Assembly (NCBI GenBank): GCA_902363665.1
Contig: CABJAW010000002.1
Span: forward strand, 124,001 to 188,000
DNA length: 64,000 nucleotides
DNA from: Lachnospiraceae bacterium
Lineage (GTDB): Bacteria; Bacillota; Clostridia; Lachnospirales; Lachnospiraceae
Direction of reading: 5' to 3'
Position numbers and translations under genes: made by a program. Numbering within the stretch: position 1 is the first letter of the stretch; each line of letters opens with the position of its first letter. The notes beneath the pieces are model-generated. The model was not told where the DNA came from and searched no databases. It saw nothing but the letters and a program-made list of their open reading frames with translations. Positions 29,428 through 53,474 of the stretch are shown piece after piece.

Positions 29428-30375
29428 TCATACAAATGACGCTGCCAGCTCCTCCAGCTTTCCGAACGAATATCCCATCTCTTCCCACTTTGTGAGCAGT
29501 TCGTCGAGGATGGCTGCGTTTGTCGGGGAGGTGTTGTGCAGCAGCACAAGTGCCCCCGGATGAATGCGGCCAAGCAGCTTCTCAAACGCCTCTTCCTTCG
29601 TGGGCTGGTTATCTGCATACCAGTCTACATAAGCCAGGCTCCAGAAAAACGTTTTGTAGCCCAGCTCCTGCGCCATCTTCAGGTTCGCCTCGCTGTATTT
29701 TCCCTGCGGCGGCCGATAATATTTTGAGATTTCCTGTCCGGTCGCCTCACGAAACAGCGATTCCAGTCCGCCGATCTCTTTTTGAAAGGAAGTAAGATCC
29801 GCCATCTGTGACATATCCGGGTGGTGCTCCGTATGGTTGCCCACCGTGTGATGCTCTGCGAGCATCTGCTGTACCAGTTCCGGATTGTCCTTCACAAAAT
29901 TTCCCACCACAAAAAAAGTGGCCGGCGTCTGATGCTTCTTCAGGGCTTCCAGGATTGCCGGTGTATTTCCGTTCTCATATCCACAGTCAAATGTCAGATA
30001 AATACGTTTTTCTTCCGTGTTTTCTGCATAGTATGCATTGTATTTTGCAAGCTCCTCAAATGTTGCGTTCGCAACCGGAGGTTTTCCCTCTTCCTGAAAA
30101 CTCAGACCCCAGTTTCCTTCTGCGGCGTCCCGGAACACCGTGCTGCCGGATACCGCTGCTGCCTCTGCCTCTTTATTTCCCACATTCTCAGACGCATCCG
30201 CATTGTTTCCGCCTTTCATTTCTGTCCTGCCGCTTATCCCACTCTGTCTCTCCTCTGTCCCCTGGTACTTCATCACGCACGCTGCCGCGATATTGCCCGC
30301 AAAAAAAGCAGCCAGAAACACAAGGAATATGGCCGCTCTTTTTTCTGTCACATATTTTGTTATTTTTTCTTCCAT
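29428..30375 (-). CDS. pdaA: PdaA-type polysaccharide deacetylase (muramic delta-lactam synthesis)
   Basis: A 315-residue membrane-anchored NodB-family deacetylase. One TM helix (IFLVFLAAFFAGNIAAACV) follows a short cytoplasmic tail, then a linker, then the catalytic domain: motif 1 IYLTFDCGYENGNT, motif 2 HTVGNHTEHHPDM, motif 3 KYYRPPQGKYSE and the late FFWSLAYVDWY and GALVLLHNTSPTNAAIL. This pattern is PdaA, which de-N-acetylates muramic acid for spore cortex delta-lactam. ATG 30375 has GGAG 8 bases upstream. It is 45 bp after the SMR-type genes and could be co-transcribed. E. coli ArnD, in the arn lipid pathway, belongs to the same superfamily, so a role with the neighbouring cluster cannot be excluded. 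Confidence 0.88.
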   Translation of the reverse strand: MEEKITKYVTEKRAAIFLVFLAAFFAGNIAAACVMKYQGTEERQSGISGRTEMKGGNNADASENVGNKEAEAAAVSGSTVFRDAAEGNWGLSFQEEGKPPVANATFEELAKYNAYYAENTEEKRIYLTFDCGYENGNTPAILEALKKHQTPATFFVVGNFVKDNPELVQQMLAEHHTVGNHTEHHPDMSQMADLTSFQKEIGGLESLFREATGQEISKYYRPPQGKYSEANLKMAQELGYKTFFWSLAYVDWYADNQPTKEEAFEKLLGRIHPGALVLLHNTSPTNAAILDELLTKWEEMGYSFGKLEELAASFV

Positions 30376-30420
30376 CGCATACACTCCGGGAGTTTCTTAC
30401 CTCTACTGTATGCACATGCT

Positions 30421-30756
30421 TTACAGCGTATACACAAAAATTCCGGTAATGATAATCAGATTGCCGATCAGCTGCCCTTTCGTGAAATGTTCTTTCAGGA
30501 TCAGCCATGAAAGCACCATGACAAACACATAGCTGAAGGTATCGATCACTGCGCCGTATTTCATGTCCACCACGGTGAACGCGTAGGTATTGAGCAGCAG
30601 CGTAGAGAATGAGATACCGTATGCGACGATCACACGCCAGTTCAGATATTCATAGATTACACTTTTATACGTTTTTCCTGCACTCTGCTTGAGAAGTACC
30701 TGTGAGATGGCTGAGAAAAAGGTTCCCAGAAACATCAGTAATAAATATGGAAGCAT
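30421..30756 (-). CDS. Small multidrug-resistance/EamA-like membrane protein (ArnE-sized)
   Basis: A 111-residue protein with four hydrophobic helices (LLLMFLGTFFSAISQVLLKQ; VIVAYGISFSTLLLNTYAFT; VIDTFSYVFVMVLSWLIL; LIGNLIIITGIFVYTL). SQVLLKQSAGK near the first helix and the SYVFVMVLSWLILKE motif are typical of the DMT/SMR fold. It directly follows a second such protein (15 bp gap). Paired small DMT proteins act as heterodimers, for example ArnE/ArnF, which flip undecaprenyl-phosphate-sugar. Location beside a GtrB/ArnC-like transferase suggests that job here. Confidence 0.82.
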   Translation of the reverse strand: MLPYLLLMFLGTFFSAISQVLLKQSAGKTYKSVIYEYLNWRVIVAYGISFSTLLLNTYAFTVVDMKYGAVIDTFSYVFVMVLSWLILKEHFTKGQLIGNLIIITGIFVYTL

Positions 30757-30770
30757 TCCTTTCCCTCCTG

Positions 30771-31184
30771 TCAGTTCTGTTTTTCACCCGTCGAAGCCAC
30801 ATCTGTCTTCTGCCCGGAGCCGGTCTCCTTTTTCTCTGCACTTAAGGAGACGACGATCACACCGAGCAGCACGATCAGCACACCGATGACATTGCGCACC
30901 GACAGCTTCTCTCCGAAAATTGACACCGCCCACACCTGACTCCAGAGCAGGTAAACGCTGCGGTTCGCATATCCAATATTCAGATCAAATTTTTTGATGA
31001 TTTTCTGCCAGCAGATTGCGTAGATGAAGCAGTCAAAAAACATCAGAAATGCAAATACGTACAGCAGCGGGTTTTTCAGCCCGCCGCTCTTCAGCTGAAT
31101 CGATGCCGATTTCGAAAAGACACTTGTAAACGAAAACAGTATGACTGCCAAGTGCAAAAAGACATAATCTTTTATCTTTTCCAT
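30771..31184 (-). CDS. EamA/SMR-like membrane protein (ArnF-like partner)
   Basis: A 137-residue protein with four helices (LAVILFSFTSVFSKSASI; LLYVFAFLMFFDCFIYAICW; SVYLLWSQVWAVSIFGE; VIGVLIVLLGVIVVSL) and a hydrophilic C-terminal tail of about 25 residues. It has the N-terminal FTSVFSKSAS helix typical of EamA halves. Its start overlaps the end of the ATP-grasp gene by 13 bp and the 111-residue partner follows after 15 bp. The pair sizes (111 and 137) resemble ArnE/ArnF (111 and 128). A lipid-linked sugar flippase role is inferred from context. Confidence 0.82.
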   Translation of the reverse strand: MEKIKDYVFLHLAVILFSFTSVFSKSASIQLKSGGLKNPLLYVFAFLMFFDCFIYAICWQKIIKKFDLNIGYANRSVYLLWSQVWAVSIFGEKLSVRNVIGVLIVLLGVIVVSLSAEKKETGSGQKTDVASTGEKQN

Positions 31185-32392
31185 AATTCCTCCAGGGACG
31201 TTCCGTCCACTTTGATGCAGTGATAAACCCGGCTGATTGTCTGGTCAAGCTGCTCTACGCAGTCCGCTTCCATCACAACCTGTCCAATCCGCGTCGTGCC
31301 GTTCTGCATTGCCTCCACCGCATGGCCAACCGGAAAATCCAGCTTAATCGCAATGCCCTTTTCCCGCATCCTTTCCAGTTTTCTTTCATTGATCTCTGTG
31401 ATCATGCCGTCCACCGGGCTCATCAGCAGCTTCGCCATGCACGGCACGCCTTCCTTTTCCGGTGTAAAACCAACCGGCTGTCCCAGCGCATTCTGCAGGA
31501 TTTTTTCGTAAAAATCGAAGCCATAATACATCGAGATCAGCTCCGGAATGCAGGTTGCCCCTGTCCGTCCGCCCATCTCGATGATCCACGCTTTCCCCTT
31601 CTCATTGTCCACGAATACATCTGCATTCACGGAGCAGTTGTCAAGGCCGAGCGCTTTTACTGCAAGGCGCATCTGTTTTTCAATCTCTTTTTGCAGCCGT
31701 TCACTTCCAAGGTACGGGAAGCCATGCCCGGCCGGGATCGTGATCTTGTCCGTGTGATAGACAAACTTTTCATGCGGCGCCAGAAATACAAGTTTGCCAC
31801 CCTGTACCATACCGTCCACGCCGATCTCTGTCCCCTCCAGCTTTTCCTCTACAAGCACATATTCTTTTCTGGAGCGGTCGAGCGCATTGTGATAAGCCTC
31901 CCTGAGCCCGGATGGCTCATTTACAATCGTGATACCGCGGCTTCCGGAACTGTCTACCCGCTTTACTACAACCGGAAATCCGATTTCTTCTGCTGCCCGG
32001 CATACTTCCTCATAGCTGTATGCCTTCCGGAACTTTGCCGCAGCCACGCCTTCGCGCGCAAACGCTTCCTTCATCTGTGCCTTATCCGTTGCACGTACAG
32101 CCGCTTCCTCAGATACACCTGCCAGTCCCATTTCCTGGCACACATACCCGATCGTTGCCACTGCCACATCCGTTCCGGTCGTACAGATCCCGTCGATCTG
32201 CTCTTCCTGGCAGACCTTCAGAATTCCCACTTTGTCCACCGTATTAATTTCATAAACCTTATCTGCAAGTGCAAATCCGGGATAACCCCCCGGAATACTT
32301 GCGACAATGGTATACAGCCCCATTTTTCTGGCTGTCAGAATAAGCGGAACCTGATATACACTGGCTCCGAGAATCATGATCTTCCGCTGCAC
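31172..32392 (-). CDS. ATP-grasp ligase
   Basis: A 406-residue protein of the carbamoyl-phosphate-synthase/biotin-carboxylase-like ATP-grasp group. The N-terminal Rossmann domain begins KIMILGASVYQVPLI. The substrate/ATP lid region is FPVVVKRVDSSGSRGITIV, and the metal-binding end is CSVNADVFVDNEKGKAWIIEMGGRTGATC. The C-terminal domain is about 110 residues (GVPCMAKLLMSPVDGMITE...). ATP-grasp enzymes join a carboxylate to an amine or thiol through an acyl-phosphate. Substrates here are unknown. The start is GTG 32392 with GAGGAG 8 bases upstream; a nearby ATG is out of frame. Next to a GtrB-like transferase and SMR pair it may build or decorate the transported lipid-linked sugar. Confidence 0.88.
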   Translation of the reverse strand: MQRKIMILGASVYQVPLILTARKMGLYTIVASIPGGYPGFALADKVYEINTVDKVGILKVCQEEQIDGICTTGTDVAVATIGYVCQEMGLAGVSEEAAVRATDKAQMKEAFAREGVAAAKFRKAYSYEEVCRAAEEIGFPVVVKRVDSSGSRGITIVNEPSGLREAYHNALDRSRKEYVLVEEKLEGTEIGVDGMVQGGKLVFLAPHEKFVYHTDKITIPAGHGFPYLGSERLQKEIEKQMRLAVKALGLDNCSVNADVFVDNEKGKAWIIEMGGRTGATCIPELISMYYGFDFYEKILQNALGQPVGFTPEKEGVPCMAKLLMSPVDGMITEINERKLERMREKGIAIKLDFPVGHAVEAMQNGTTRIGQVVMEADCVEQLDQTISRVYHCIKVDGTSLEELWKR

Positions 32393-32450
32393 GGCATCTT
32401 CTCCTCTTTTTCTGTCACTTTTTCTGCCCTGTTGCTTCTGTGGAACTCCC

Positions 32451-33437
32451 TCACACTTTTGGCTCCGGTGCTTCTGTGGTCTCCCTCACAAGTGCTTTCA
32501 GCCGCTCCTGCGCATTTCCCGCATTTACCGTATCGCGCACAATGAACTGCGGCGTATTATTCAGGATCAAAATAATCTTGCCAAGGTATTCTCCGATCAC
32601 GCCAAGCACCATCAGCACAAGTCCGAAAAAGACAACCACCACGCACAGCGTCGAAGACCAGCCAACCGGAATATCCGGATTCAGAATCTTGTTGATGATA
32701 ATCAGAATTGCCATCACTGCGCCCGCAAGCCCGGAAAAAATTCCAAGGCCGAAGGAAATCCGAAGCGGGATTACTGAAAAATTCCAGTAACGCAGCCACA
32801 GATTGATCAGCTTCTTTAACGTATAACCAGAAGTACCGACCTCTCGTTTGAAATGCTCTACCGGCACATTTCCGATGTTGTGCGTTACGCGGTAAAAAAT
32901 ACCGTCTATGTAGGGATTGAAGCTGTCGTATTTCACAACCTCCTCCTGCACCGCCTTCGTAATCATCCAGAAATTACTGGAAACAATCTCTTTCGGCCGG
33001 TTCAGCATGATTCGTGAGGTCACTTCATTTAATTTACTGGTCAGATTTTTCTTCCAGGAGTTCTTTTTCTGCGGATAGACACCATAAACGAGGTCATAGC
33101 CCTCCTCCATCTTGTGGATCAGCCTGAAAATCTGTGACGGATGTGTCTGCATGTCATCATCCATTCCCAGCACGCAGTCTCCCTTTGCGTAATGAAGCGC
33201 TGCCATCAGCGCATTGTGCTGACCAAAATTGCGCATCAGATTTACACCGCACACGTTGCTGTATTCTTTTCCGAGTTTTTCGATTTCCGGCCAGGTGCCG
33301 TCCGTCGACCCGTCATTGACCAGAACAAACTCGCACGTGTAGCCTTTGTTTTTTTCAAATTCTGCCATTACGAGCTCTACGACCTTGCGGATCGTTTTTT
33401 CCGAATAATAGCAGGGGATTACAACTGATATCAGCAT
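32451..33437 (-). CDS. GtrB/ArnC-like polyprenyl-phosphate glycosyltransferase, GT2
   Basis: A 328-residue enzyme that transfers a sugar from a nucleotide donor to undecaprenyl phosphate on the inner leaflet. The GT-A domain starts SVVIPCYYSEKTI and has FVLVNDGSTDGTW, LMRNFGQHNALMAAL and the metal DxD in LGMDDDMQTHPSQ. The family RYWNFSVIPLRISF motif precedes two C-terminal TM helices (FSGLAGAVMAILIIINKIL; LCVVVVFFGLVLMVLGVIGEYL). The donor sugar is unknown. It is the second gene of a five-gene operon with the PLP enzyme upstream and the ATP-grasp and SMR genes downstream. No membrane GT-C glycosyltransferase to use the product is in the window. Confidence 0.92.
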   Translation of the reverse strand: MLISVVIPCYYSEKTIRKVVELVMAEFEKNKGYTCEFVLVNDGSTDGTWPEIEKLGKEYSNVCGVNLMRNFGQHNALMAALHYAKGDCVLGMDDDMQTHPSQIFRLIHKMEEGYDLVYGVYPQKKNSWKKNLTSKLNEVTSRIMLNRPKEIVSSNFWMITKAVQEEVVKYDSFNPYIDGIFYRVTHNIGNVPVEHFKREVGTSGYTLKKLINLWLRYWNFSVIPLRISFGLGIFSGLAGAVMAILIIINKILNPDIPVGWSSTLCVVVVFFGLVLMVLGVIGEYLGKIILILNNTPQFIVRDTVNAGNAQERLKALVRETTEAPEPKV

Positions 33438-33526
33438 TGGTTTTCTCTTTTCTTATCTTTTCTTATCTTTATTTGTAAATCTGCACCTTGCTTCCTGGGG
33501 CTTTTGCTGCCTCGCTCCCCGGACGT

Positions 33527-34504
33527 TCAGAACACAGGCTGCTTTGAACTATGAGTCACGTAGTCGAAGAACAGAGGGGTGCCGCCGGTGTGGAGAAACA
33601 GGATTCTGCTGTCCCGGACAGCGGCATCACGCACATATTCTGTCATTCCCCAGAATGCTTTTGCTGTATAGATCGGATCAAGCGGGATTCCGTTGGTCAG
33701 ATACTGCTCACGGATACACGCTTCCACGCGTGCATCATACTTTCCATAGCCATCCTGGCGATATGCGTCAAGCAGATGGATTTCCGCGGAAAGATCCTCC
33801 GGCATCCGCTCCCGCACCCCGGGATGCTCCGCAAAATACGCACGTATTCCTTCCTCGATCACCTGATACGCACGTGTTGTCTCACGCGAGGAGATCATCA
33901 CGCCTATGATCTTTTTCCCGTCTCCTGCCAGAAGATGCCCGCAGGTCAGCCCTGTCTGCGTCGCCCCCGTCCCGCATGGGCAGAAAATATAGTCAAATGT
34001 GAGGCCGGACTCCTGCTCCTGGCGAAGAATCTCTCCGTAAGCCTCTGCATACGCCCTCGCCGCGGCTCCTTCGTTTCCTTTCCCGTACCTGTCACCGTAA
34101 ATATAGTACGGAACTCCTCCGGATTCCTGAATTTCCTTCATCACCCGCTCTACCGTCTGTGCAATTTCATTCTTCGCACAGTTTACGATTTTTGTCCCCG
34201 TCCATTCGATCAGATGTGTGTTATTCGTCGGAGCACTGTCCTCTCCGTCTTCATGGGAACAGATCATGATACATTTTGTCCCGCGGCTGAAACAGAGATC
34301 CGAAAGCACACGGCACAGATTTGAGTGACGGCTTCCATAAATAATCATCGTATCGCCGCCCTTTGCCTTCATATCCTGATAAAAGGCTTCTGCAATACGC
34401 ACCTTATTGCCGCCGATCGAAAACGGAAGCAGGTCATCCCGTTTGATATAAAATTCATTTCCGGCAGGATCATCCATTGCCAGACGCTGAATAATGGTAT
34501 CCAT
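33527..34504 (-). CDS. PLP-dependent enzyme of the ACC deaminase/D-cysteine desulfhydrase family
   Basis: A 325-residue fold-II PLP enzyme. The N-terminal FYIKRDDLLPFSIGGNKVR carries the PLP lysine typical of this family. YGSRHSNLCRVLSDLCF contains the second conserved segment, and FCPCGTGATQTGLTCG is the phosphate-binding Gly loop. The C-terminal LDPIYTAKAFWGM and LFLHTGGTPLFFDY also match. Members deaminate ACC or release sulfide from D-Cys, while many remain unassigned. It is the first gene of the glycosyltransferase/ATP-grasp/SMR operon (promoter at 34556-34584), so a biosynthetic role that supplies an amino acid for that pathway is plausible but not proven. Confidence 0.88.
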   Translation of the reverse strand: MDTIIQRLAMDDPAGNEFYIKRDDLLPFSIGGNKVRIAEAFYQDMKAKGGDTMIIYGSRHSNLCRVLSDLCFSRGTKCIMICSHEDGEDSAPTNNTHLIEWTGTKIVNCAKNEIAQTVERVMKEIQESGGVPYYIYGDRYGKGNEGAAARAYAEAYGEILRQEQESGLTFDYIFCPCGTGATQTGLTCGHLLAGDGKKIIGVMISSRETTRAYQVIEEGIRAYFAEHPGVRERMPEDLSAEIHLLDAYRQDGYGKYDARVEACIREQYLTNGIPLDPIYTAKAFWGMTEYVRDAAVRDSRILFLHTGGTPLFFDYVTHSSKQPVF

Positions 34505-34555
34505 ATTTCATTTCCTCATTTTCTCGTTTTTACAGCACTTGATGTTTTCTTTACG

Positions 34556-34584
34556 ATTATAATGCATTTTGACAGCAAGCGCAA
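34556..34584 (-). promoter_or_regulatory. Promoter of the PLP-GT2-ATP-grasp-SMR operon
   Basis: TTGCGC at 34584-34579, 17-bp spacer, TATAAT at 34561-34556, about 52 bp before the PLP gene. The -35/-10 pair is the same as at the ltaE promoter. Confidence 0.7.
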
Positions 34585-34591
34585 GGAATAC

Positions 34592-34644
34592 AAAAAAACA
34601 GGCCACAGACCCGCCTGCACTGCTTCGCAGCTCCTGTCTGTGGC
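34592..34644 (-). terminator. Intrinsic terminator after the GH18 gene
   Basis: CCACAGAC...GTCTGTGG stem with an inner GCTGCGAAGCAG hairpin, followed by CCTG and seven T on the minus strand. It separates the GH18 gene from the next operon. The string GCTCCTGTCTGTGGCTGATG (34630-34649) recurs exactly at 56622-56641. Confidence 0.8.
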
Positions 34645-38087: not shown

Positions 38088-41000
38088 TTACTCTCTTCCG
38101 CTTTTTCTGCGTTTCTGTTCTGATACAACCAGCAGTGCGAATGCCGCAAATGCGATTGCCATCAATCCTGCATAACCTCCGATCGGTGTGTCGTCTCCGG
38201 TCTTTACGCCCTTCGTCGGCTTCGTGGTCGGCTGTGTCTCGGATTCTGTTTCCGGAACCTCCTTATTGGTGATCACGACAACTGCTTTCGAACGTTCTGC
38301 CGTCAGGTCAACCTTCGTCTGATCAACAGAAACCTCATACTTGAAGCCTGCTGCACCGGCAATCGGATTGCCCTCTTCATCGACCTCCGTCACGTACAGT
38401 GTGACTGTCGAATCCTTCTTGGCAATGTCAACTTTCGTCATTGCGGATGCCTCTGCGTTTCCATTCAGGTCAAGCTCCAGAACATTATACTCTACCTTGT
38501 CTGACAATGTTGTATATTCCGGATCGTCAAAGATTCCTGCATAGAAGACTCCATTGGAATTCTTCGGCTTGCCGTCTGCTCCGAGAAGTTTCTTCGTGAC
38601 AGTCAGCTCACCATGCTGGTAAGGATTGTGCGGAAGCTCCACATTCGTAATGATGACCGATGCTTCCCTGCCTGCCGCTATCTCAACCTCTTCTTTGTCT
38701 ACGCTGACTCCGTACTTGAAGCCTGCCATTTCCTTCACAGGATTGCCGTCCACATCTACTTCAGTTACATAAAGTGTTGTCACAGAATCCGCAGAATCCA
38801 CTTTTACTTTCGTCTGGGCAGTTACCTCTGATGCTCCATTCAGTGCAAGCGTCAGGATATTCTCCTCTACCTTGTCAGAAAGCTGCGTAAAGTCTGCATC
38901 ATCAAAGATTCCTGCATAGAAGGTTTCATCGGAATCTTTTGCCCTGCCGTCTTCCGTCACGAGTTTCTTTGTGACAGTCAGCCTGCCTTCATAAGACTTC
39001 TCTTTGTTTGTAATTGTGACCTCGGCTTTTGTATGCTTCGGATCAATATTTACTTCTGTCTTATCAGCAGATACCTCATATGCAAAGCCAGGCGCACCCT
39101 TTACCGGGTTGCCGTCCTCGTCGACCTCAGTCACATAGAGCGTTGTCACAGAATCCAGTGATTCGATCTGTACATTTGTCGACATTGATGTCTCGGAGCC
39201 GCCTGACATATCCAGTTCAAGCAGATTGTACTCTACCCGCTCAGACAGCGTTGTGTACTCCGGATCATCAAAGATTCCAGCATAGAAGACTTCGTCGGAA
39301 TCTTTTGCCTCTCCGTCTGCACCAAGCAGCTTCTTTGTAACCGTCAGCGTTCCTTTTGCGTAGAAATTGTGCGGCCAGCTCTGAAGCTGATTGTCGAGGT
39401 ATACGACTTTATTCTCGCCTTCTTCCACCGTAACCACCTGTCCGTTCGTTCCGGTAAATACAGGCGTATATACCGTACCGTCTTCCAGTACGCCGGAATA
39501 CATTACATTTCCGTCCGCATCACATTCTCCTGCGTAGTAGGTTCTGCCTGCCTCCAGATTGTCAAATGTTACCTTTCCGGACATTGCGTTTACGATCTTG
39601 ATCTCTTTGAGCTCAGTTGCCGGCTTCGTGCATTCCTTGTCATAGAAGAGACGTACGTAGAAGCTCAGATTCTCTGCAAACAGCTCAAGTCCGTTGTAAG
39701 TTATCTTCTTCTCGATCGTGGTGCTTGTGTTCTCCGACGGTTTCAGCTTATCTTCTACGATGATCACACCGTTTACTACCGATGCAGTCGCAGTCACTGT
39801 GCCGTCCTTTGCAACGGTAAATGTGACATCCGCTGTTACCTCGTAGCCTTCCGGAGCTTTTGACTCATGCAGCGTGTATTCCACGTCTGTCTCAATACCC
39901 TTAATCACATGATTCGTTCCGCTCTCGGAATCCCACTCATCCACGATGTTGCCTGCGCCGTCCAGTACCTGGAAATGTGCTCCGGTCAGCTCTTCGCCTG
40001 TGCCGATGTCCACCTTCGATACTGCTGCGCTTCTTGTGTTAGTTACGTCATAGCCATCCACTTCACTGATGTATCCGTCTACCGGATCCTCGGTGATCGT
40101 GTAGGTGATCTCCTGTCCGACTTCGCCTTCTTTGTACTTCGGAAGATCTGTAAAGCTCCATTTCCAGTCGTCATCTGCGGTTACGGTCTTCGCCAGATCA
40201 GTCAGCTCCTCACCGTCTGCATAAATGCGGATCGTGATGCTCTCCGGTCTTGCGCTCTCGTTGCCGCTATCGGCCCAGGTCTTGGCGCCTTCGATATTTA
40301 CAGTCTCAGGCGTGTGTGTATTCGTCAGGGTCGTGATAATGCTTACTGTCTCAGTCGGCAGAACCTCTTCCCCTTCCATCGGCGGTGCCAGAAGCTCTTC
40401 CGTCTTCGTATCGGTCAGCTCATAGCCCTCCGGAAGTCCGTCCTCCTGCTCAGCCCAGGTATAAATATTCTCCACACCAGCGGTATACTTCGGAAGATCT
40501 TTTACTCCGTCAGACCAGCTGTTTTCTTCATTCAGCGTTACCGTTGCAATCACTTCGCCGTTCTTCTTCAGATCGACTTTGAGTTCTGCCGGACGGATGC
40601 CATCCTGGTTGTCTGCGTCGTCCCACTCTTTCCGAACGGATACGTTCACCAGTTCCGGAACGTGCGTGTTCGTCAGGGTCGTAAAGGTTCCGTCTGTCTT
40701 ATTTAAAGTCAGCTCATAGCCTTCCGGTACTTCCGCCTCTTTCCAGGTGTACTTATTCAAAGTGCCATTTGTGTACTCATCCAGATCCTTGATGATCGCG
40801 CTCCATTCATTGTCTGCACTGAGCGTTACCTTCTGATCCGTCTCTTCTCCGTTCTTCACAAGAATTGCTGTGATCGTCTCTGGACGCTTGCCATCCTGGT
40901 TCTTTGCGTCATCCCAGATCTTCAGAATGCTTGCACTTACCTTGCCCGGTGTGTGTTTATTCGTCAGTGTGGTAATGGCTGCTTCCAGTGTGTCTTCGGT

Positions 41001-44000
41001 TGCTTCTGTTACTTCTTTCTTCGTATCAGTCAGGCTATAGCCCTCCGGCAGATTTTTCTCTGCCCAGGTGTATACGTTCTCTACGCCGCCGGTGTACTTA
41101 TCAAGATTCTCCACAGTGTCGGTCCAGCCGTTCTCCTCATTCAGAGTGACCGTTCCTGCCACTTCCGTGCCGTTTCTCATCAGGTCTACCGTCAGCTCAG
41201 TCGGACGTTTGCCGTCCTGATTGTCTTTGTCATCCCATACCTTCTTCACAACTGCGTTAATCTTCTGCGGTGTGTGGGTGTTTGTCAGGGTGGTGATAAA
41301 TCCAGTGACGCCTTTTCCAGGTGAAAGGATATCATAAGTTACTTCGTTGGTCAGCTCATAACCGTCCGGAATGTTATCTTCCTTCTCGGTCCAGAAGTAC
41401 TCATACATCTGACCATCACTATACTTCGGAAGATCCGATACACTTGCCTTCCAGTCATTTGCTGCGGTCAGTTCTACGGTCTTGACTTCCTCTGCCGGAT
41501 TGGTACCAACATCATCCAACGAGATCGGAACCGCCTGCTCTCTGATTCTGCGCATCAGTGTGACAAACAGCTTCTCCGGCCGCTTACCGTCCTGATCGTC
41601 ATTGTCATCCCAGGTCTTTTCAACCGATGCCTCAATGGTGTCCGGCGTGTGTGTATTGGTCAGTGTCGTAATACCCATTTCATCAGGATCTGAGACTGTA
41701 ACCGTATAGCCATCCGGCAGCTCCTCAGACCAGGTGTATACATTTGGTTCAGCAACTGCGGTATTCTTAGGCAGATTCGTGATCATCGCCGTCCAGCCGT
41801 TTTCTTCATTCAGGATTACGTACTGACCGGTCAGTTCACCGTTCTTCAAAAGATCTACTCTCAACTCCGATGGACGGATGCCATCCTGGTTCTCTGCGTC
41901 ATTCCAGATCTTGCGAACTCCTACAGATACCGTATCCGGCACGCGTGTGTTCGTCAGGGTCGTAACCTCGCCCACCGTCACATCACCGGTCAACTCATAG
42001 CCTTCCGGAAGTCCGTCCTCCTGCTCAGCCCAGGTGTAAATATTCTCCACACCGGCGGTATACTTCGGCAAATCCTCAACTGTTGTTTCCCATCCATTTG
42101 CCGTATCCAATGTTACGGTCTGAATAACCTGGTCATTCTTTTTCAGATCGACTTTGATCTCGGTCGGGCGGACGCCATCCTGATTGTCGGAATCGTTCCA
42201 TGTCTTCCTGATGGTCGCATTGACTACCTCCGGCGTATGCGTATTCGTCAGAGTCGTCAGTCTGCCTTCCTTCTTCGTATTCGTCAGAGTATAACCATCC
42301 GGCACTTCTGCCTCTTTCCAGGTGTACTCATTCAAAGTACCATTCGTGTACTCATCCAGTCCTGTAATTGCTGCTGTCCAGTGATTTACCTCACTTAATG
42401 TAACGCTCTGAGTGGTCGGCTCATTATTTTTCACAAGAGTTACAGTAATCTCACTCGGACGGATGCCGTCCTGATTCTCACCGTCATTCCATACCTTCAG
42501 AACACTTGCCTCTACCTTTCCAGGTGTGTAGCTGTTCGTCAGTGTGGTAATGGCTGCTTCCAGTGTGTTTTCGGTTGCTTCTGTTACTTCTTTCTTCGTA
42601 TCAGTCAGGCTGTAGCCCTCCGGCAGATTTTTCTCCACCCAGGTGTATCCGTTCTCTACGCCGCCGGTGTACTTGTCAAGATTCTCCACGGTGTCGGTCC
42701 AGTTGTTCTCCTCATTCAGAGTGACCGTTCCTGCCACTTCCGTGCCGTTTCTCATCAGCTCTACCGTCAGCTCAGATGCACGCTTGCCATCCTGATTCTC
42801 ATTGTCATCCCATACCTTCTTCACAATCGCATTGATCTTCTGCGGCTTGTGCGAATTGGTCAGCCTGGTGATAAATCCAGTGACGCCTTCTCCAGGTGAA
42901 AGGATATTATAAGTTACTTCGTTGGTCAGCTTATAACCGTTCGGAATGTTGTCTTCCTTCTCGGTCCAGAAATACTCATACATCTGACCATCCTTATACT
43001 TCGGAAGATTCGATACACTCGCCTTCCAGTTATGTGCTGCTGTCAGTTCTACGGTCTTGACTTCCTCTGCCGGATTGGTATCCGCATCATCCGCATCATC
43101 CAACGAGATCGGAACCGCCTGCTCTCTGATTCTGCGCATCAATGTAACAAGCAGCTTCTCCGGACGCTTGCCGTCCTGATTGTCATTGTCATCCCAGATC
43201 TTTTCAACAGATGCCCCGATGGTGGCCGGTGTGTGCGTATTTGTCAGTGTCGTAGTACCCACTTCATCAGGGTCTGAAACTGTAACCGTATAGCCATTCG
43301 GCAGCTCCTCAGACCAGGTGTACTCATTTAAGGTTCCATCTGTGTACTCATCCAGATTGTCGAGCGTTGCGCTCCATCTGTTTTCTTCGCTTAAGATTAC
43401 AAACTGATCGGTTGCCTGACCATTTTTCAGCAGGTTCACACGCAGAGTCTCCGGACGGATGCCGTCCTGATTATTCGTGTCGTCCCATACCTTCTTTACC
43501 GATGCGCTTACCTTGCCCGGCGCGTAGGTATTGGTCAGGGTTGTAATCGTACCGATTACCACATCATCGCTGTTTTTCTCGTCTGTGACAGCTGCGCTCT
43601 CCAGACTATAGCCCTCCGGCATGGTTCCCTCAACCCAGCTGTAACGGATCGGAGTGCCGTTCTCATTTTTCGCAAGGTTTTCCACCTCAGCAGTCCAGTT
43701 GTTGGCAGCGTCTAAGGTCACGGTCTGCACCACAACGGTCTCATTCTTCATCAGAGTAACTGTGAGATCCTGCGGACGCTTGCCATCCTGATTGTCTGCA
43801 TCGTCCCATACCTTGACAACCGTTGCATTTACCGTCTCCGGTGTATGCGTGTTCGTCAGGATTGTCTTGCTTGTGTCTTCACTGTCATATCCTGTCGTCA
43901 GAGTATAGCCCTCCGGCACATTCTCTTCCTCCCAGGTATAGGTGTACGGTTTGCCATTTACATTCTTTGCAAGACCGGATTTCGTTGCAGCCCAGTGATT

Positions 44001-47000
44001 TATTTCATTTAAGACTGCCTCGTCTACCTTATGCTTCGCAACGCCGTCTGCCTCTGCATACAGAGTTACGGTGATGCTCTCCGGACGGATGCCATCCCGG
44101 TTTCCATCATCGTTCCATACCTTCTGTACGGATACGCTTGTTTCTTCCGGTGTGTACGCATTGACCAGAAGCGTCATGTTATCCCCTGTCTCACTCGGAA
44201 GCGGCTGATAGCCGTTCAGGCCTTCCTGACTTTCCTCCCAGAAATACTGGATTTCTGTACCGTTTTCATACTTTGGAAGATCATCTACGGTCTTCTTCCA
44301 GCTGCCATCCTCACCGGCTGTCAGCGTGTAAGTGTCAACCGTGCCTACGAGACCATTGACGCTCTTTTTCAGAATAACGGTGATGCTCTCCGGACGCTTT
44401 CTATCCTGATTGTCGTTATCCCTCCATCTCTTCTCAACTGTAGCGCTGGCCTTTTCCGGTGTATGCGTATTCGTCAGCGTCGTGACAAAAGATTTCTCGC
44501 CGTTTTGCTGAGCTGCTTCCACCGTATATCCTGGCAGCTGCGTCTCCTCTGTCCAGTAGTACGTATAAGCTACACCATTTTTGAACTTCAGAAGATCTGT
44601 TTTCGTATACTTCCAGTTGTTTGCTTCATTTAAGGTTGTCTCCAGGATCTCTTCTGCTGCCGCCTCGCCTGCCTTACCATACAGCTTCACGGTAATGCCG
44701 GTCGGGCGCTTGCCATCCTGGTTGTTGTTATCGTTCCATACCTTCTCAACACTTGCTTCCACTTTTTCCGGAATGTGGGTGTTCGTCAGGATTGTCTTGC
44801 TTGTGTCTTCACTGTCATATCCAGTCGTCAGAGTGTAGCCCTCCGGCACATTCTCTTCCTCCCAGGTATAAGTGTACGGTTTGCCATTTACATTCTTTGC
44901 AAGACCGGATTTCGTTGCAGTCCAGAGATTTGTTTCATCTAAGACTGCCTCGTCTACCTTATGCTTTGCAACGCCGTCTGCCTCTGCATACAGAGTTACG
45001 GTGATGCTCTCCGGACGGATGCCATCCCGGTTTCCATCATCGTTCCATACCTTCTGTACGGATACGCTTGTTTCTTCCGGTGTGTACGCATTGACCAGAA
45101 GCGTCCTGTTATTCGCTGTCTCACTCGAACGCGGCTGATAACCGTTCAGGCCTTCCTGACTTTCCTCCCAGAAATACTGGATTTCTGTACCGTTTTCATA
45201 TTTTGGAAGATCATCTACGGTCTTTTTCCAGCTGCCATCCTCACCGGCTGTCAGCGTGTAAGTGTCAACCGTGCCTACGAGACCATTGACGCTCTTTTTC
45301 AGAATAACGGTGATGCTCTCCGGACGCTTGCCATCCTGGTTGTCGTTATCCCTCCATCTCTTCTCAACTGTAGCGCTGGTCTTTTCCGGGGTGTGCTCAT
45401 TCGTCAGTGTGGTGATATACGCGTTATCGCTGTTCATTGTTGAGCCATTTTTCAGCATATAGCCAGTTATGCTTCCCTCTGTCCAGAAATATTCATTTTC
45501 CACACCGGTTGTATATTTCGCAAGTCCGGTTTCTTCTGCACTCCAGTTGTTTGCCTGGTTCAGTGTCACCGTCTTCACTTCTACAGCCGCACCTGCACTC
45601 GGGATATCAGTCTCCAGCTGCTTTGCCCTGCGCCACAGTGTAACGGTCAGTTCAAGCGGGCGAATGCCATCCTGATTGTTGTTATCGTCCCATACTTTGT
45701 AAACCGTCGCATTTACCGTCTCCGGTATATGCGTGTTCGTCAGTGTGGTCGTGCTTTCCTGGGTTGAGCTGCTTAAGGTATAACCCTCCGGCACAGAGAC
45801 TTCCTCCCAGGTATAGATGTTCTTCACTCCGTCTGTATACTCCTCCAGATCGGATACCGTGTAGCTCCAGTGGTTCTCACTGTTCAGAGTCACGGTCTTG
45901 TAAACTTCACCGTTCTTCTTCAGTACAACCTCCAGACTCGTCGGACGGATTCCATCCTGATTATCGGCATCGTTCCACTCTTTCTCTACGGATGCACTTA
46001 CCTTGCCCGGCGCATATTTGTTTGTCAGCGTCGTAACAGTGCCATTCACATCCCTGGATTCAAGGCTGTAGCCCTTCGGAAGACTGCTTTCCTCCCAGAT
46101 GTACTCATTTGCAACACCATTCGTGTATACGTCCAGCTCTGTCTCAGTCGCTGTCCAGCCGTTGTCCTCGTTTAATTCATGACTGCCAACTATTGTCTCG
46201 GTCTGTCCGTTCTTCTTTTTCAGAACAACCGTGATTGTCTCCGGGCGTTTGCCATCATTATTATTTGCATCATCCCATACCTTCTTCACAGTTGCCGGTG
46301 TCTTTTCCGGTGTATGCGTATTCGTCAGCGTAGTAACAAATGAATTTCCGCTGTTTTCCTGCGCTGCTTCCACCGTATAATCCGGCAGCTGTGTCTCCTC
46401 TGTCCAGTAGTACGTATAAGCTACGCCGTCTTTGAACTTCGGAAGATTGGTTTTCGTAAACGTCCAGTTGTTTGCTTCATTTAAGGTTGTCTTCAGGATC
46501 TCTTCTTCTGCCGCCTCGCCTGCCTTGCCATACAGCTTCACAATAATGTCAGTCGGGCGCTTGCCATCCTGGTTGTTGTTATCGTCCCATACCTTTCTAA
46601 CACTTGCTTCCACTTTTTCCGGAACATGTGTGTTCGTCAGGGTTGTAATCTCGCCTTCCGTCACAATACTTTTGAAATAATAGCCTTTCTCTTCCAGTCC
46701 AGCTGTGTGCTCAGACCAGTTGTAAAGGTTCAGCTTGCCATTTGTGTACTTCGGAAGATTCTCAATCTCCATCTGCCAGCCGTTTCCTTCATTCAACGTT
46801 ATAGTCTGAACGAGCTCATTCGGAGCATTCCAGCTGTTTCCGACCTTCTTTTTCAGGTCAACCTTAAGCTCAGTCGGGCGCTTGCCATCCTGGTTGTTCT
46901 CGTCATCCCATACCTTTCTGATGACTACCCGAACTACCTCCGGGGTATAGGTGTTGGTTACGTTGTAGCCGCTTACACTTGTTGTATAATTTGTTACTGC

Positions 47001-50000
47001 ATCCTCAGAAATCGTATAAACAATCTCTCTTCCGTTCGCATACTTCGGCAGATTTGTGAATGTCCACTTCCAGTTATCTGCTGCCGTAACAGTCTGTACC
47101 TTATCGGTCAGCGCTGTGCCATCCGCATACAGACGGATCGTGATGCTGCTCGGACGCTTGCCATCCTGGTTGTTCGCATCGTCCCAGTGCTTGCCTCCGC
47201 TGATATTGATTGTCGCAGGGATATGCATGTTGGTTACGTTGTAACCATCCACAACAGTCATGTAATTCTCTACCGCATCCTCGGTAATTGTATACTCAAT
47301 CTCGGTTCCTGCATCTTTGTACTTCGGCAGATCTGTGAATTTCCAGCTCCAGTTGTTCGCTGCTGTTACGGTCTGAACCTTATCAGTCAGCTCTGTGCCA
47401 TCCGCATACAGACGGATCGTGATGCTGCTTGGACGCTTGCCATCCTGGTTGTTCGCATCGTCCCATGTCTTGCTTCCTTCGATGTTGATTGTCTCCGGTG
47501 TGTGCGTGTTTGAGATCGTCCAGGCATTATCCGTATTAGAATAGCCGACCTCATAAGTCACATTCTCATTATTTACCAGATAAGTGATCTTTGCTCTGTC
47601 ATCAACCGGTGTCATACTGCCATCTTCATTCCTCTGCAGCTCTCTGACGGTATAAGCGATGAGTTCGCCGTTTTCTTTGTCCGGCAGTTTTTCCCATTTA
47701 TAGCTCCAGTTGTTGCCTGCATTCAGCTCGACCGGATCACTCTGCGGATGTCCGTTCGCATACAGCTGTACCATGACGCTCTCCGGACGCTTGCCATCCT
47801 GGTTGTCTGCATCGTTCCAGGTCTTTACGACGCTGATGTCAATATCCTTGCCTTCTTCATCATAAATGTCAAAAGTATATCCATTTCCGTGTGCACCATC
47901 CGCTGTAATACTTCCTACTGTAAATGTAAGCGGATCAGCCTTTTTATATCCTTCCGGTGCCTGAATCTCTTTCAGCACATACGTATGCCCTTTGGTCAGC
48001 TCCCAACCATCTGCCTGATACGCACCTGCCATCATAAATTCGCCATTAGCATCCGTCGTAAACGTCACGTCACCGCCTGTTTTATTATTCTTAACAGCAG
48101 TTTCGCTTCCATCTGTCAGTTCAAACAGCTGGAATATTGCTCCTTGCAGCCGTTTCTGTTTGTCGTGTGCGTCGCGCTTGATAACCTTATACTGGAAATG
48201 TTCTGCTGAACCTTCTCCATCTGTTGTAATCTGTGCAGTCTTATCTCCTGTTGATGCAGTGTAATTTCCTGTAACTGTTACATTATTTTTATAAGTAACA
48301 GTTCCTGTTCCTATGATCTGTGCCTGATAGGTGATCGTTGCTTTACATTCGTCAGGTATTGTCACTGTCAGACCTTTTTTATCTGTATCAAAATCCCAAC
48401 TGGAAGTACCTTCCGGCTCCAGTGTAATCTGTACAGAGTCTGTTACAAGCTCCATCGCATCTGAAAATGTATCTGTTACTGTAAGATCATTTCCTCCATT
48501 CAACTGTAACTTGTCCGGGTTAACTACTACTGTAAATGTTGAAGTATAATGATTAAGCTTATTTGGAGAACCAGTTTCAGTCTTTGTAAGTGGATTTACC
48601 TTATAATCCACACTGACTTCACCTGTACTCTTACCTTCCCATTCTGCAGTATTTCCAATCTTTGTGGTATGATCTGGATTCTTTGCTGCTTCCTGCTGAA
48701 TTTTTTTCAGAGCCTCTGCATCTTTTACTTTCAAATAGTATCTGATGCTATACCAGCTATAATATGCACCACCACTTTTCGTCGCTACGTTTTTGATTGA
48801 GAATGTTGCTCCTGTCTCAGTCGGTGTTACCGTAAGCGTTCCACCGTTGCTGGAACCATTTGCTCCGTTATCAGCAATCCAAGATTCGTCACCTGCTCCA
48901 AACTGTGCATTATTATAAGAATTACTATCTGTAGTTACAATTTCAAACAAGTCAGGATCAAAGATATCATGGATTTCCAGTGTATCTGTATCCACACCTC
49001 TGAGATAAATCTTGAATTTATATGCCGGCATACCACCAATCGTAGCATTTCCATTCTCCACTGACTTGCTAATCTCATGCTCTTTAAGAATATAGCTGTC
49101 ACTTGCGTTTTTACTTGTGCCATCTCCTGTTGCCGTTACTGTATTAGTGTGATTTTCTCCATCTGGCCAGGTTGAATCCGGTATTGTCGTATAGGTCATT
49201 GTCAATACCCGTTCTGTACCTGTTGTTGCTGGGAATAATCCTGCAAGTTTCTCCGGTTTGAAAACCACCTGAATAGATCCGGAAGATTTATTGTGGCCTT
49301 CCGTTACTGGTGCTGTGTATTTGATATCATAGTTATCTGCAGCGATTGTCTGACCATTCATGGCAATCTGCAAACTTCCTTCTTTATAGGAATCTGCATG
49401 ATATCCACCTGTCCAGGTAAACGGAAGTGCATCTGTTATAGTAAATGATTCATTAAATCCACAATTTGGAATCGTTACATCTACAGTCCAGTTCACTCCA
49501 TCTTTTGACGGTGCTGCATGTGTCTTTGTTACACCAAACTGATTCTGCCCTTCTACTCCAACACTTCCATCTGTTCCTTTACCGTCAAACTCTGCATGGT
49601 TTGTAACAGAAGTATTCTCTGTTGTTTTTGAAATATCAGACGTTGTTGTATAAGAAATCTCATATTTATATGGTGTTCCATCCTTTTGCGGGAGTTCATA
49701 ACTCCAGGTGGTATCACTATGACTCTTCAGCTGATCCCACGGAATTGGCTCACTGCTGACCAGTGTCCCATCCGCCTTGTATTTCTTCACAGTAATACCT
49801 GCGCCGGAATACTTTGTTGGAACCTTTTTATTTTCCTGGATCTTGTCTGTTACAAGACTACCGCCTACATCCGTCTTTGCATCTGCATTAACAGTGATTG
49901 TCCAGTTAGAAGTCTGCCATCCGTTTGTTATCTCACCTTTCGTACCACTTTTGGTAATTCCGGTGTCATATGCCATGGTATGATCAAAGTTATGATCCTT

Positions 50001-52333: not shown

Positions 52334-53464
52334 TTATGAGATATAGCTCTCATCTTCTTTTGTCTGAAGCTGAACGGTGCCGGTTTCCTCATACTCTTTT
52401 TTCAGCTTTTGGTAGGACTCCCGGCGATTCTGGATGTATTCGTCGATATTGTCCTTTGTCAGCAGGATACCGAAATTTTCCCGGCTGCCTTTTCCGTACA
52501 TCGTATCGACCATCGCATCCGCGACAACGTTTTTGTAATGGCCTTCGTTGATGAAATTGTAGGGGTTCAGGTTTTCCGGGGTGAAACCGCTGAAATCCCA
52601 GATATCGGTGACATCGACCAGATGTCTTAGATAGGTGTAGTAATCCTCGCTTTCAAATTTAAATATTTCCGCAAGGAAGGTCGGACCAATCACCACTTTC
52701 AGTGTCACGCCTTTTTCGTCGCACAGCGCCTTCAGCTCCTGAAATGCCTCCACATTTGCTTCCATCGCCGGCTCTTCCACTCCTTTTTCAAAAAGAAGCT
52801 CCAGGTTCTGCTTATAGCGCGGCATTACATATTTTTTGATATACTTCTGTTCATCTTTTTCGATCAGCTGGTACGGATAGCTGTAATTGCGTTCTCCGGT
52901 AATCAGGCTGTCCATGCCATTTTCCTTTGTAGCCTTGTCCTCCATCGCATACTCGACACTCGTCTCGATGTTGCGGCACAGATAGTTCAGGTTTTCCAGC
53001 AGGACGTCCCCTGCATTGCCGTTTACAAATGCCGGGACCTCATAAATCTCATTTACCTGCGAACGGTCAAACATCTGCACCTCGATGCTGCTTAAATGCA
53101 GGGTGATCTCATCGATCCCCACCGTATCGATCAGCCAGGAAGCGTACGTCAGATAGTCAGAAAAACAGCCATATGCCACATAAAAATTATAATAGTTTTT
53201 GCCGGTATACTCCGACAGGCGCTCCGTACTCAGCACGCCCGCTTTCGAACCGCCGAGCACGACCGCATTGTAATCATCCGCGTATTTCCTGAGGTATTTG
53301 CACTTCGCCGCACGCGTGTAGCCGTTCGCATCGACGGTCTCATCACCGTGCTCGACCGCAAAATAACCCGTATCGTCAATCTGATAATTCACCGCCATAA
53401 ATGCCGCCGTTCCCACAAAGACGATCGCGAAAAACAGCAGCAACCATTGTTTACTTTTTTTCAT
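52334..53464 (-). CDS. SGNH/DltD-like partner of an MBOAT acyltransferase
   Basis: A 376-residue protein with one N-terminal signal-anchor helix (WLLLFFAIVFVGTAAFMAV) and an extracellular domain. AVVLGGSKAGVLS carries the Ser in the position of the SGNH/GDSL nucleophile, and the later FINEGHYKNVVADAMV supplies a His typical of MBOAT-associated hydrolases. These proteins pass an acyl group onto a wall or extracellular polymer after the MBOAT exports it. The MBOAT gene is 10 bp upstream. The acceptor is unknown; exopolysaccharide or teichoic-acid-like polymers are the usual ones. Confidence 0.82.
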   Translation of the reverse strand: MKKSKQWLLLFFAIVFVGTAAFMAVNYQIDDTGYFAVEHGDETVDANGYTRAAKCKYLRKYADDYNAVVLGGSKAGVLSTERLSEYTGKNYYNFYVAYGCFSDYLTYASWLIDTVGIDEITLHLSSIEVQMFDRSQVNEIYEVPAFVNGNAGDVLLENLNYLCRNIETSVEYAMEDKATKENGMDSLITGERNYSYPYQLIEKDEQKYIKKYVMPRYKQNLELLFEKGVEEPAMEANVEAFQELKALCDEKGVTLKVVIGPTFLAEIFKFESEDYYTYLRHLVDVTDIWDFSGFTPENLNPYNFINEGHYKNVVADAMVDTMYGKGSRENFGILLTKDNIDEYIQNRRESYQKLKKEYEETGTVQLQTKEDESYIS

Positions 53465-53474
53465 TTGATCCTCC

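What the first reader, a model, noticed from the sequence alone, without database searches (positions are those of the whole stretch)
30421..34584. Five-gene operon: PLP enzyme, GtrB/ArnC-like transferase, ATP-grasp ligase and a paired SMR flippase
Seen: one promoter (34556-34584), five close or overlapping minus-strand genes, and a terminator just upstream. Known: ArnC-like GT2 enzymes load sugars on undecaprenyl phosphate, and paired small DMT proteins (ArnE/ArnF) flip such lipids. Inferred: the ATP-grasp and fold-II PLP enzymes may make and attach an amino-acid-like group to the lipid-linked sugar, giving a decorated wall sugar in a Gram-positive. I know of no described system with exactly this set, and no membrane GT-C acceptor transferase is present in the window. 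The NodB-type deacetylase 45 bp downstream (29428-30375) may or may not belong.
Basis: partly seen in the sequence, partly recalled or inferred. Interest (0 to 1): 0.75.

Follow-up and report, generated by a model that had tools for sequence, protein, structure and literature searches.

The report
Predicted aminoacyl-sugar wall decoration operon
A five-gene operon in what looks like a gut Firmicute (Lachnospiraceae-like) that most likely attaches an amino-acid-like group to an unusual amino sugar, loads the sugar on a membrane lipid and flips it outward to decorate the cell wall: a variant of known wall-glycosylation systems for which no description was found.

Summary
In detail: five minus-strand genes (PLP fold-II enzyme, ArnC/GtrB-type GT2, ATP-grasp ligase, two SMR-type membrane proteins). 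The order recurs in 28 of 79 loci fetched with the ATP-grasp profile; the SMR pair shows opposite charge biases, the antiparallel-heterodimer signature; PLP and ATP-grasp are one fused ORF in two genomes. New here: the probable sugar. In 200 family genomes all 15 ATP-grasp-positive ones carry WecE, the dTDP-Fuc4N transaminase (50 of 185 others do); so do 46 of 48 cassette genomes. One genome of a sister branch (L101) has RmlA, RmlB, WecE, ATP-grasp, GT, SMR pair and the GT-C enzyme YfhO on one strand. Best reading: the ATP-grasp enzyme acylates the amine of Fuc4N with an amino acid (or similar acid) that the PLP enzyme makes or edits; the GT loads it on undecaprenyl phosphate, SMR1/SMR2 flip it, and a GT-C such as YfhO, encoded elsewhere, transfers it to a wall polymer. 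In relatives a DegT-fold or PaaK-like enzyme stands in for the PLP enzyme, and the ATP-grasp tree sorts by that partner. Amino acid, step order and acceptor are unknown; no activity was shown. A new variant of multi-component transmembrane glycosylation.

The parts
33527..34504 (-). PLP-dependent fold-type-II enzyme, D-cysteine desulfhydrase/ACC deaminase superfamily, substrate unknown; K34, N33, S61, N62, Y253, Y279, T280, T306 align with StDCyD K51, N50, S78, N79, Y261, Y287, T288, T315; Gln77/His80 replaced by H60/L63
32451..33437 (-). GT2 polyprenyl-phosphate glycosyltransferase of ArnC/GtrB/PgfS type (two C-terminal TM helices)
31172..32392 (-). ATP-grasp carboxylate-amine ligase; predicted to acylate the 4-amine of a 4-amino-4,6-dideoxyhexose
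30771..31184 (-). SMR1, small membrane protein, positive K/R bias half of the predicted flippase
30421..30756 (-). SMR2, small membrane protein, negative K/R bias half of the predicted flippase
34556..34584 (-). probable promoter TTGCGC-17-TATAAT
   Evidence: read; not called by the scan (-35 only 3/6)
34596..34616 (-). terminator-like hairpin of the upstream GH18 gene, separating the operon from it

Best explanation
A multi-component transmembrane glycosylation operon for an acylated amino sugar. (1) dTDP-Fuc4N (4-amino-4,6-dideoxy-D-galactose) is made by RmlA, RmlB and WecE encoded elsewhere (inferred from co-occurrence and from operons in relatives). (2) The PLP enzyme makes or edits an amino acid or amino-acid-like acid (inferred; product unknown, possibly a D-amino acid). 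(3) The ATP-grasp ligase activates that acid as an acyl phosphate and couples it to the 4-amine of Fuc4N, either on dTDP-Fuc4N or after loading on the lipid (inferred). (4) The GT2 enzyme moves the sugar from dTDP to undecaprenyl phosphate on the inner leaflet (inferred from family). (5) SMR1/SMR2, an antiparallel heterodimer, flips the lipid-linked sugar (inferred from fold, charge bias and family). (6) A GT-C enzyme, probably a YfhO homologue elsewhere in the genome, transfers it to a wall or lipoteichoic-acid-type polymer (inferred; acceptor unknown).
For: Gene order: 28 of 79 loci carry PLP-GT-ATPgrasp-SMR1-SMR2 on one strand (in L048 a D-Ala carboxypeptidase gene intervenes before SMR1). 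Fusion: ATP-grasp and PLP in one ORF in two genomes (L080, 715 aa; L081, 690 aa, cut by the contig start), each with SMR1, SMR2, YfhO and WecE alongside. Sugar: in 200 genomes of G001's family all 15 ATP-grasp-positive ones have WecE, against 50 of 185 others (Fisher 1.4e-8, relatedness not corrected); 46 of 48 cassette genomes have it (45 over cut-off). Controls, read from the lists: RmlD is in 171 of 200 and in all 15, so uninformative; another 4-amino-sugar transaminase family, LegC (TIGR04181), is in 41 of 200 but in 0 of the 15. Linkage: 7 of 10 DegT-type neighbours tested are WecE over cut-off. L101 has YfhO, RmlB, RmlA, SMR1, SMR2, a PaaK-like gene, WecE, GT and ATP-grasp on one strand, the three sugar enzymes over equivalog or subfamily cut-offs. 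YfhO is within 9 kb of the ATP-grasp gene in 22 of 79 loci (11 of the 50 with an SMR pair), plus L052. Flippase: K/R bias positive in 47 of 49 SMR1 (2 neutral), negative in 49 of 49 SMR2, as reviewed for SMR heterodimers (PMC9574504, passages). Ligase: LAL_C2 (L-amino acid ligase domain) over cut-off in the L101 homologue, weak in the window. Coevolution: the ATP-grasp tree needs 3 changes for three partner labels (minimum 2; shuffles 30.9).
Against: L101 and most of the 15 ATP-grasp-positive genomes belong to sister branches: only 4 of the 15 also have the PLP gene, and L101's ATP-grasp lies in the PaaK-type clade. PLP-positive genomes have WecE in 6 of 8 (Fisher 0.015); the two without (G017, G127) have DesI-like transaminases, under that model's cut-off, so the sugar may vary. 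The two WecE models disagree in name on the 4-epimer (NF008687 galactose, TIGR02379 glucose), so Qui4N is not excluded. In window-type loci (L001-L017, L031) no WecE or YfhO lies within the fetched flanks; in five such genomes looked at, WecE sits in a large polysaccharide cluster, so Fuc4N has other uses and the link is by co-occurrence. The window's own genome is not held, so its WecE and YfhO could not be checked. YfhO is common anyway (139 of 200). L016 has PLP, GT and ATP-grasp but no SMR genes beside them. No substrate was shown for any enzyme.
Confidence: 0.55

Rival explanations
1. Same lipid-flipping scheme, but the sugar is not Fuc4N: the GT uses a common UDP-sugar (GlcNAc, Gal or a uronic acid) and the ATP-grasp enzyme amidates a sugar carboxylate or acylates another amine. 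WecE merely co-occurs because these bacteria make rich surface polysaccharides.
For: WecE is not near the window-type loci and in five such genomes sits in its own polysaccharide cluster; the GT scores best, though far under cut-off, to PgfS (170.8 of 500 bits).
Against: WecE in 15 of 15 ATP-grasp-positive genomes while RmlD is near-universal and LegC in 0 of 15; WecE within 2 kb of the ATP-grasp gene in 5 of those 15 and near PLP or fused genes in 7 loci.
Confidence: 0.24
2. The PLP enzyme is a metabolic passenger (D-amino-acid lyase, D-cysteine desulfhydrase-like) transcribed with, but not part of, the decoration pathway.
For: Superfamily membership; catalytic Tyr-Thr (Y279-T280) and T306 as in D-cysteine desulfhydrase. 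Absent in 49 of 79 ATP-grasp loci.
Against: Fused to the ATP-grasp enzyme in two genomes; never together with c14, which takes its place; His instead of Gln77 and Leu instead of His80 in the substrate loop.
Confidence: 0.2
3. The lipid-linked sugar modifies proteins or glycolipids rather than a wall polymer.
For: PgfS (protein glycosylation in streptococci; recalled) is the GT's best-scoring NCBIfam model.
Against: YfhO, near the ATP-grasp gene in 22 of 79 loci (11 of 50 with an SMR pair) plus L052, is a teichoic-acid glycosyltransferase in B. subtilis, S. aureus and Listeria (PMC8035078, passages).
Confidence: 0.2
4. The PdaA-like gene 29428-30384 belongs to the pathway and deacetylates the lipid-linked sugar (as ArnD- or NaxD-type deacetylases do; recalled).
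For: Directly downstream in the 11 closest loci.
Against: Not within 4 kb in the other 17 of 28 complete cassettes; scores as spore delta-lactam de-N-acetylase PdaA (274.3 bits, a little under the cut-off of 298); an amine made by WecE needs no deacetylation.
Confidence: 0.06

Closest known systems
CsbB/GtcA/YfhO-type multi-component transmembrane glycosylation (PMC8035078, passages seen)
   Same: membrane GT-A enzyme loading Und-P, small flippase, GT-C of the YfhO family (the last near the ATP-grasp gene in some relatives or elsewhere in the genome)
   Different: flippase is an SMR pair, not GtrA-type; an ATP-grasp ligase and a PLP enzyme are added; sugar predicted to be an acylated 4-amino sugar
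ArnBCADTEF (L-Ara4N addition to lipid A)
   Same: 4-amino sugar, ArnC-like GT, ArnE/ArnF-like paired SMR flippase
   Different: no ArnA or ArnT among the operon's genes, amide-forming ligase present, Gram-positive host, sugar route dTDP-Fuc4N rather than UDP-Ara4N
Enterobacterial common antigen Fuc4NAc branch (RmlA, RmlB, WecE, WecD; recalled)
   Same: dTDP-Fuc4N made by WecE
   Different: acylation predicted by an ATP-grasp ligase instead of the acetyl-CoA enzyme WecD; single-sugar decoration through Und-P-sugar rather than repeat-unit assembly
ATP-grasp L-amino acid ligases (BacD, LAL family) and 4dim
   Same: ATP-grasp fold; LAL_C2 domain over cut-off in the L101 homologue; 4dim (named phosphoribosylglycinamide synthetase by its depositors) matches residues 3-386 at 7.7e-54
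   Different: BacD matches only in part (phmmer 57-170; profile 54-304); no substrate for 4dim-like enzymes is known from these calls

Membership tests
Multi-component transmembrane glycosylation system (CsbB/GtcA/YfhO kind) | membrane-linked GT-A enzyme that loads a sugar on undecaprenyl phosphate | tested here: inconclusive
   family and two TM helices fit; activity not testable
Multi-component transmembrane glycosylation system (CsbB/GtcA/YfhO kind) | small membrane flippase | tested here: inconclusive
   paired SMR proteins with opposite K/R bias and SMR-like fold, not GtrA-type; flipping itself not testable
Multi-component transmembrane glycosylation system (CsbB/GtcA/YfhO kind) | GT-C acceptor glycosyltransferase in the system | tested here: inconclusive
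   none seen in the window; YfhO near the ATP-grasp gene in some relatives and present in 10 of 10 ATP-grasp-positive genomes tested, but also in 139 of 200 family genomes
Arn system | ArnA, ArnD and ArnT acting with ArnC and ArnE/ArnF | tested here: not met
   none of the five operon genes is ArnA-, ArnD- or ArnT-like and no GT-C was seen in the window; the rest of the genome is not held. The PdaA-like neighbour shares the deacetylase superfamily with ArnD (recalled) but scores as PdaA
SMR lipid transporters (ArnE/ArnF kind) | paired genes with opposite Arg/Lys bias | tested here: met
   criterion from PMC9574504 passages, which also say that lipid SMRs in its genome set were singletons, functional pairs being known in some bacteria
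SMR lipid transporters (ArnE/ArnF kind) | central Glu of TM1 replaced | tested here: met
   Phe in 49 of 49 SMR1, Ser/Thr/Gly in 49 of 49 SMR2 at the place eight before the TM1 Lys; that spacing is recalled from EmrE
D-cysteine desulfhydrase | score over the curated cut-off of a D-cysteine desulfhydrase model | tested here: not met
   TIGR01275 146.2 of 289.4; NF003030 110.3 of 429; NF003032 102.8 of 469; NF003029 101.8 of 610
D-cysteine desulfhydrase | Gln77 and Ser78 specificity pair | tested here: not met
   Ser kept in 25 of 25, Gln in 0 of 25 aligned (H 18, R 6, S 1)
ACC deaminase | Glu295 near the PLP ring nitrogen, with Leu in place of StDCyD Thr315 | tested here: not met
   Thr280 and Thr306 in 25 of 25; residues passages
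ATP-grasp amino acid ligase | ATP-grasp fold and LAL C-terminal domain | tested here: inconclusive
   ATP-grasp_4 over cut-off, LAL_C2 23.0 of 29.4 in the window; 41.9 of 29.4 in L101
ATP-grasp amino acid ligase | ligates an amino acid | not testable with these tools
   needs enzyme assay

The most novel reading that the evidence does not exclude
A widespread, undescribed class of wall decoration in gut Firmicutes (and at least one Actinomycetota, L052): aminoacyl- or peptidyl-Fuc4N, built with interchangeable acyl-supply enzymes (fold-II PLP, DegT-fold PLP, PaaK-like adenylating enzyme), with two tandem ATP-grasp ligases in some loci suggesting a dipeptide, and flipped by a Gram-positive ArnE/ArnF analogue. 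The free alpha-amine would put positive charge on the wall, functionally like D-alanylation or Ara4N.
Probability: 0.35. Interest if true: 0.82.

Novelty: new variant of a known kind. Interest (0 to 1): 0.66.

Why it matters
It would add amide-linked acyl groups, made by an ATP-grasp ligase, to the known ways Gram-positive bacteria decorate wall polymers, and would show an SMR heterodimer doing in Firmicutes what ArnE/ArnF do in enterobacteria. Many of the fetched records are gut isolates or gut metagenome bins by their titles, so such a decoration could shape surface charge, phage adsorption and immune recognition of commensals. It also gives a directly testable substrate for an unassigned ATP-grasp family that has a solved structure (4dim). 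Paper searches for the combination showed no description of it in their listings; they cover open-licence PMC papers only. Iyer et al. 2009 on ATP-grasp amidoligases (seen only as a reference), which may bear on it, was not held and was not read.

Tried and rejected

Selection limits: the 79 loci come from the best 80 of 229 hits to the ATP-grasp profile, so frequencies lean to close homologues; many records are MAGs with short flanks. One search was given 48 of the 79 loci (L001-L052 without L028, L033, L034, L035); this set reaches beyond the family used as background. One search tested 10 DegT-type neighbours; other 'c7' labels (e.g. L070, L077, L079) rest on my own profile. A1 is the window plus 25 of 120 listed homologues, A2 the window plus 24 of 120 listed, A3 10 of 11 c14 proteins (the cut one of L034 left out), A4 the window plus 17 loci. 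In one search the GT filter (300 bp) misses L015, L043 and L051, which have a GT. The 49-row charge-bias sets include the window and some identical pairs (such as L009 and L088); TM borders were set by hand. The tree left out ATP-grasp domains under 330 aa or 250 bits, and 27 of its 99 rows carried no partner label. P0003 looks like a chimera but stayed in A1.
Full report
WHAT IS THERE. The window carries five consecutive minus-strand genes at the stated places. Pfam and NCBIfam name them as a fold-type-II PLP enzyme of the D-cysteine desulfhydrase/ACC deaminase superfamily, a GT2 enzyme nearest to PgfS and ArnC, an ATP-grasp ligase, and two small EamA/SMR-type membrane proteins; the NCBIfam scores shown lie under the models' cut-offs. 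PDB relatives: D-cysteine desulfhydrase (3e-30), ArnC (5e-36) and, for the ATP-grasp enzyme, 4dim, whose role is not told by these calls (8e-54, residues 3-386). A TTGCGC-17-TATAAT promoter (34584-34556) and an upstream terminator-like hairpin frame the operon.

CONSERVATION. With a 26-row ATP-grasp alignment, 79 loci were fetched from species genomes (from the best 80 of 229 hits). GT and ATP-grasp genes are adjacent in 69 of 79 by a 300-bp filter. The complete set PLP-GT-ATPgrasp-SMR1-SMR2 on one strand is in 28 of 79. Two further PLP loci differ: L016 (Fusicatenibacter) has no SMR genes beside it, and L052 (Adlercreutzia, Actinomycetota) has GT, SMR2 and SMR1 divergent from YfhO, PLP and ATP-grasp. 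The window's flanking GH18 and PdaA-like genes are shared only by the closest loci (PdaA within 4 kb in 11 of 28), so they are probably not part.

THE PLP ENZYME IS A MODULE TIED TO THE LIGASE. In two of 200 family genomes the ATP-grasp and PLP proteins are one ORF (L080, 715 aa: ATP-grasp 1-391, PLP 401-710; L081, 690 aa, cut by the contig start and therefore under the ATP-grasp threshold), with SMR1, SMR2, YfhO and WecE genes nearby. Eleven of the 49 loci without the PLP gene have c14; none of 79 has both. c14 gave no Pfam match in the two members scanned but folds as a DegT/ArnB-type sugar aminotransferase. A third group has c5, distantly PaaK-like (66.5 of 646 bits). On a tree of 99 ATP-grasp domains, 72 with a partner label, the labels PLP, c14 and c5 need three changes, one above the minimum, against 30.9 in shuffles. 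Shared descent alone also clusters labels, so this supports but does not prove functional coupling.

NOT A D-CYSTEINE DESULFHYDRASE BY SEQUENCE. Against the studied Salmonella enzyme (PMC3344862, passages; alignment) the window protein keeps the PLP lysine, the catalytic tyrosine and the two threonines that tell it from ACC deaminase, but Gln77 is His and His80 is Leu. In 25 aligned relatives Gln is never present (H 18, R 6, S 1) and Leu is invariant. That paper reports that the Q77H mutant is inactive with D-Cys, and that the homologue PhAHP, with His there, abstracts the alpha proton from both D- and L-serine. A racemase-like or D-amino-acid-making role is therefore possible; it is a guess.

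THE SUGAR. Ten DegT-type aminotransferases near PLP or fused genes were scanned: seven are WecE well over two model cut-offs (one model names the galactose, the other the glucose epimer); three (L082-L084, without the SMR cassette) are DesI- or LegC-like, under cut-off. In 200 genomes of G001's family (record title Lachnospiraceae) WecE is in 65 (64 over cut-off) and in all 15 with the ATP-grasp enzyme (Fisher 1.4e-8). Only 4 of those 15 also have the PLP gene; the 8 PLP-positive genomes have WecE in 6 (Fisher 0.015). In 48 cassette genomes WecE is in 46, missing in G214 and G216. Read from the lists, RmlD is in 171 of 200 and in all 15, LegC in 41 of 200 (17 over cut-off) and in none of the 15; so the link is to WecE and not to dTDP-sugars or amino sugars in general. 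Kinship was not corrected. In the 15 genomes WecE is within 2 kb of an ATP-grasp gene in five (G163, G035, G067, G068, G204). L101 (G035) has, on one strand, YfhO, RmlB, RmlA, SMR1, SMR2, the PaaK-like gene, WecE, GT and ATP-grasp; its ATP-grasp belongs to the PaaK-type sister clade, so it is a related, not identical, system. L070, L077 and L079 have GT, ATP-grasp, c5, SMR1, SMR2, YfhO and a DegT-type gene within 3 kb. Against this: near the window-type loci neither WecE nor YfhO was found, and in five such genomes (L094-L097, L102) and in G008 (L099) WecE lies in a large cluster with several proteins weakly matching the GT profile; YfhO is divergent beside it in G002 and G008; in G003 (L098) WecE sits in a different, smaller cluster.

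THE FLIPPASE. K/R bias is positive in 47 of 49 SMR1 (two neutral) and negative in 49 of 49 SMR2 (means +3.7 and -4.1), as the SMR review gives for adjacent pairs (+4 and -4; PMC9574504, passages). Neither shows a glutamate at the inferred central position, which that review says lipid SMRs often replace. TM borders and the central position were set by hand. The SMR1 model has moderate confidence.

THE ACCEPTOR STEP. No GT-C was seen in the window. YfhO, the GT-C of CsbB/GtcA/YfhO systems (PMC8035078, passages), lies within 9 kb of the ATP-grasp gene in 22 of 79 loci (11 of 50 with an SMR pair), plus L052. It is in 10 of 10 ATP-grasp-positive genomes tested and in 15 of 15 in the family set, but also in 139 of 200 overall (Fisher 0.003).

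MECHANISM AND LIMITS. Together these give the six-step scheme in Best explanation. Shown: gene order, fusions, family and fold assignments, residue substitutions, co-occurrence. Inferred: every enzymatic step, the identity of the sugar in the window's organism, and the acceptor. The acyl group is unknown; that it is an amino acid rests on the LAL_C2 domain (over cut-off in L101, under it in the window) and on the PLP partners.

NOVELTY. It works like a CsbB/GtcA/YfhO system crossed with the Arn flippase, with an added amide-forming module. Paper searches (open-licence PMC only, listings) showed no description of the set. Rated a new variant of a known kind.

Noticed in passing
window 38088-50750 (-): A 4220-aa repetitive surface protein with many KVWDDxxNQDGxRP-type repeats (Cna_B-like by eye; no call).
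   Followed up: no
window 52334-54902 (-): MBOAT O-acyltransferase (PF03062) followed by a 376-aa one-TM protein without a Pfam match; an MBOAT-containing cluster (c10) also recurs near ATP-grasp genes in relatives (L024, L025, L036, L041).
   Followed up: partly
L033:6712-9224, L034:1740-4174, L091:7693-10128: Two ATP-grasp genes in tandem (with c14 downstream in L033 and L034); in L033 and L034 the first one belongs to a distant clade. Might add two residues.
   Followed up: partly
L085:3727-11183 (G001): The window's closest relative holds a second GT-ATPgrasp pair with a YfhO and a LytR-CpsA-Psr gene.
   Followed up: partly
L053-L079, L100, L101: A sister ATP-grasp clade often paired with a distantly PaaK-like enzyme (c5) and, in several loci, doublet YfhO genes: a second branch of the same theme.
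   Followed up: partly
P0232: A 455-aa protein carrying both PLP and GT2 Pfam domains on a 3.4-kb metagenome contig; one member only, may be an assembly artefact.
   Followed up: no
L082:7590-9621, L083:7741-9765, L084:7354-8382: PLP-family members near DegT aminotransferases and, in L082 and L083, next to a shorter ATP-grasp (about 340 aa), in clusters without SMR genes.
   Followed up: partly
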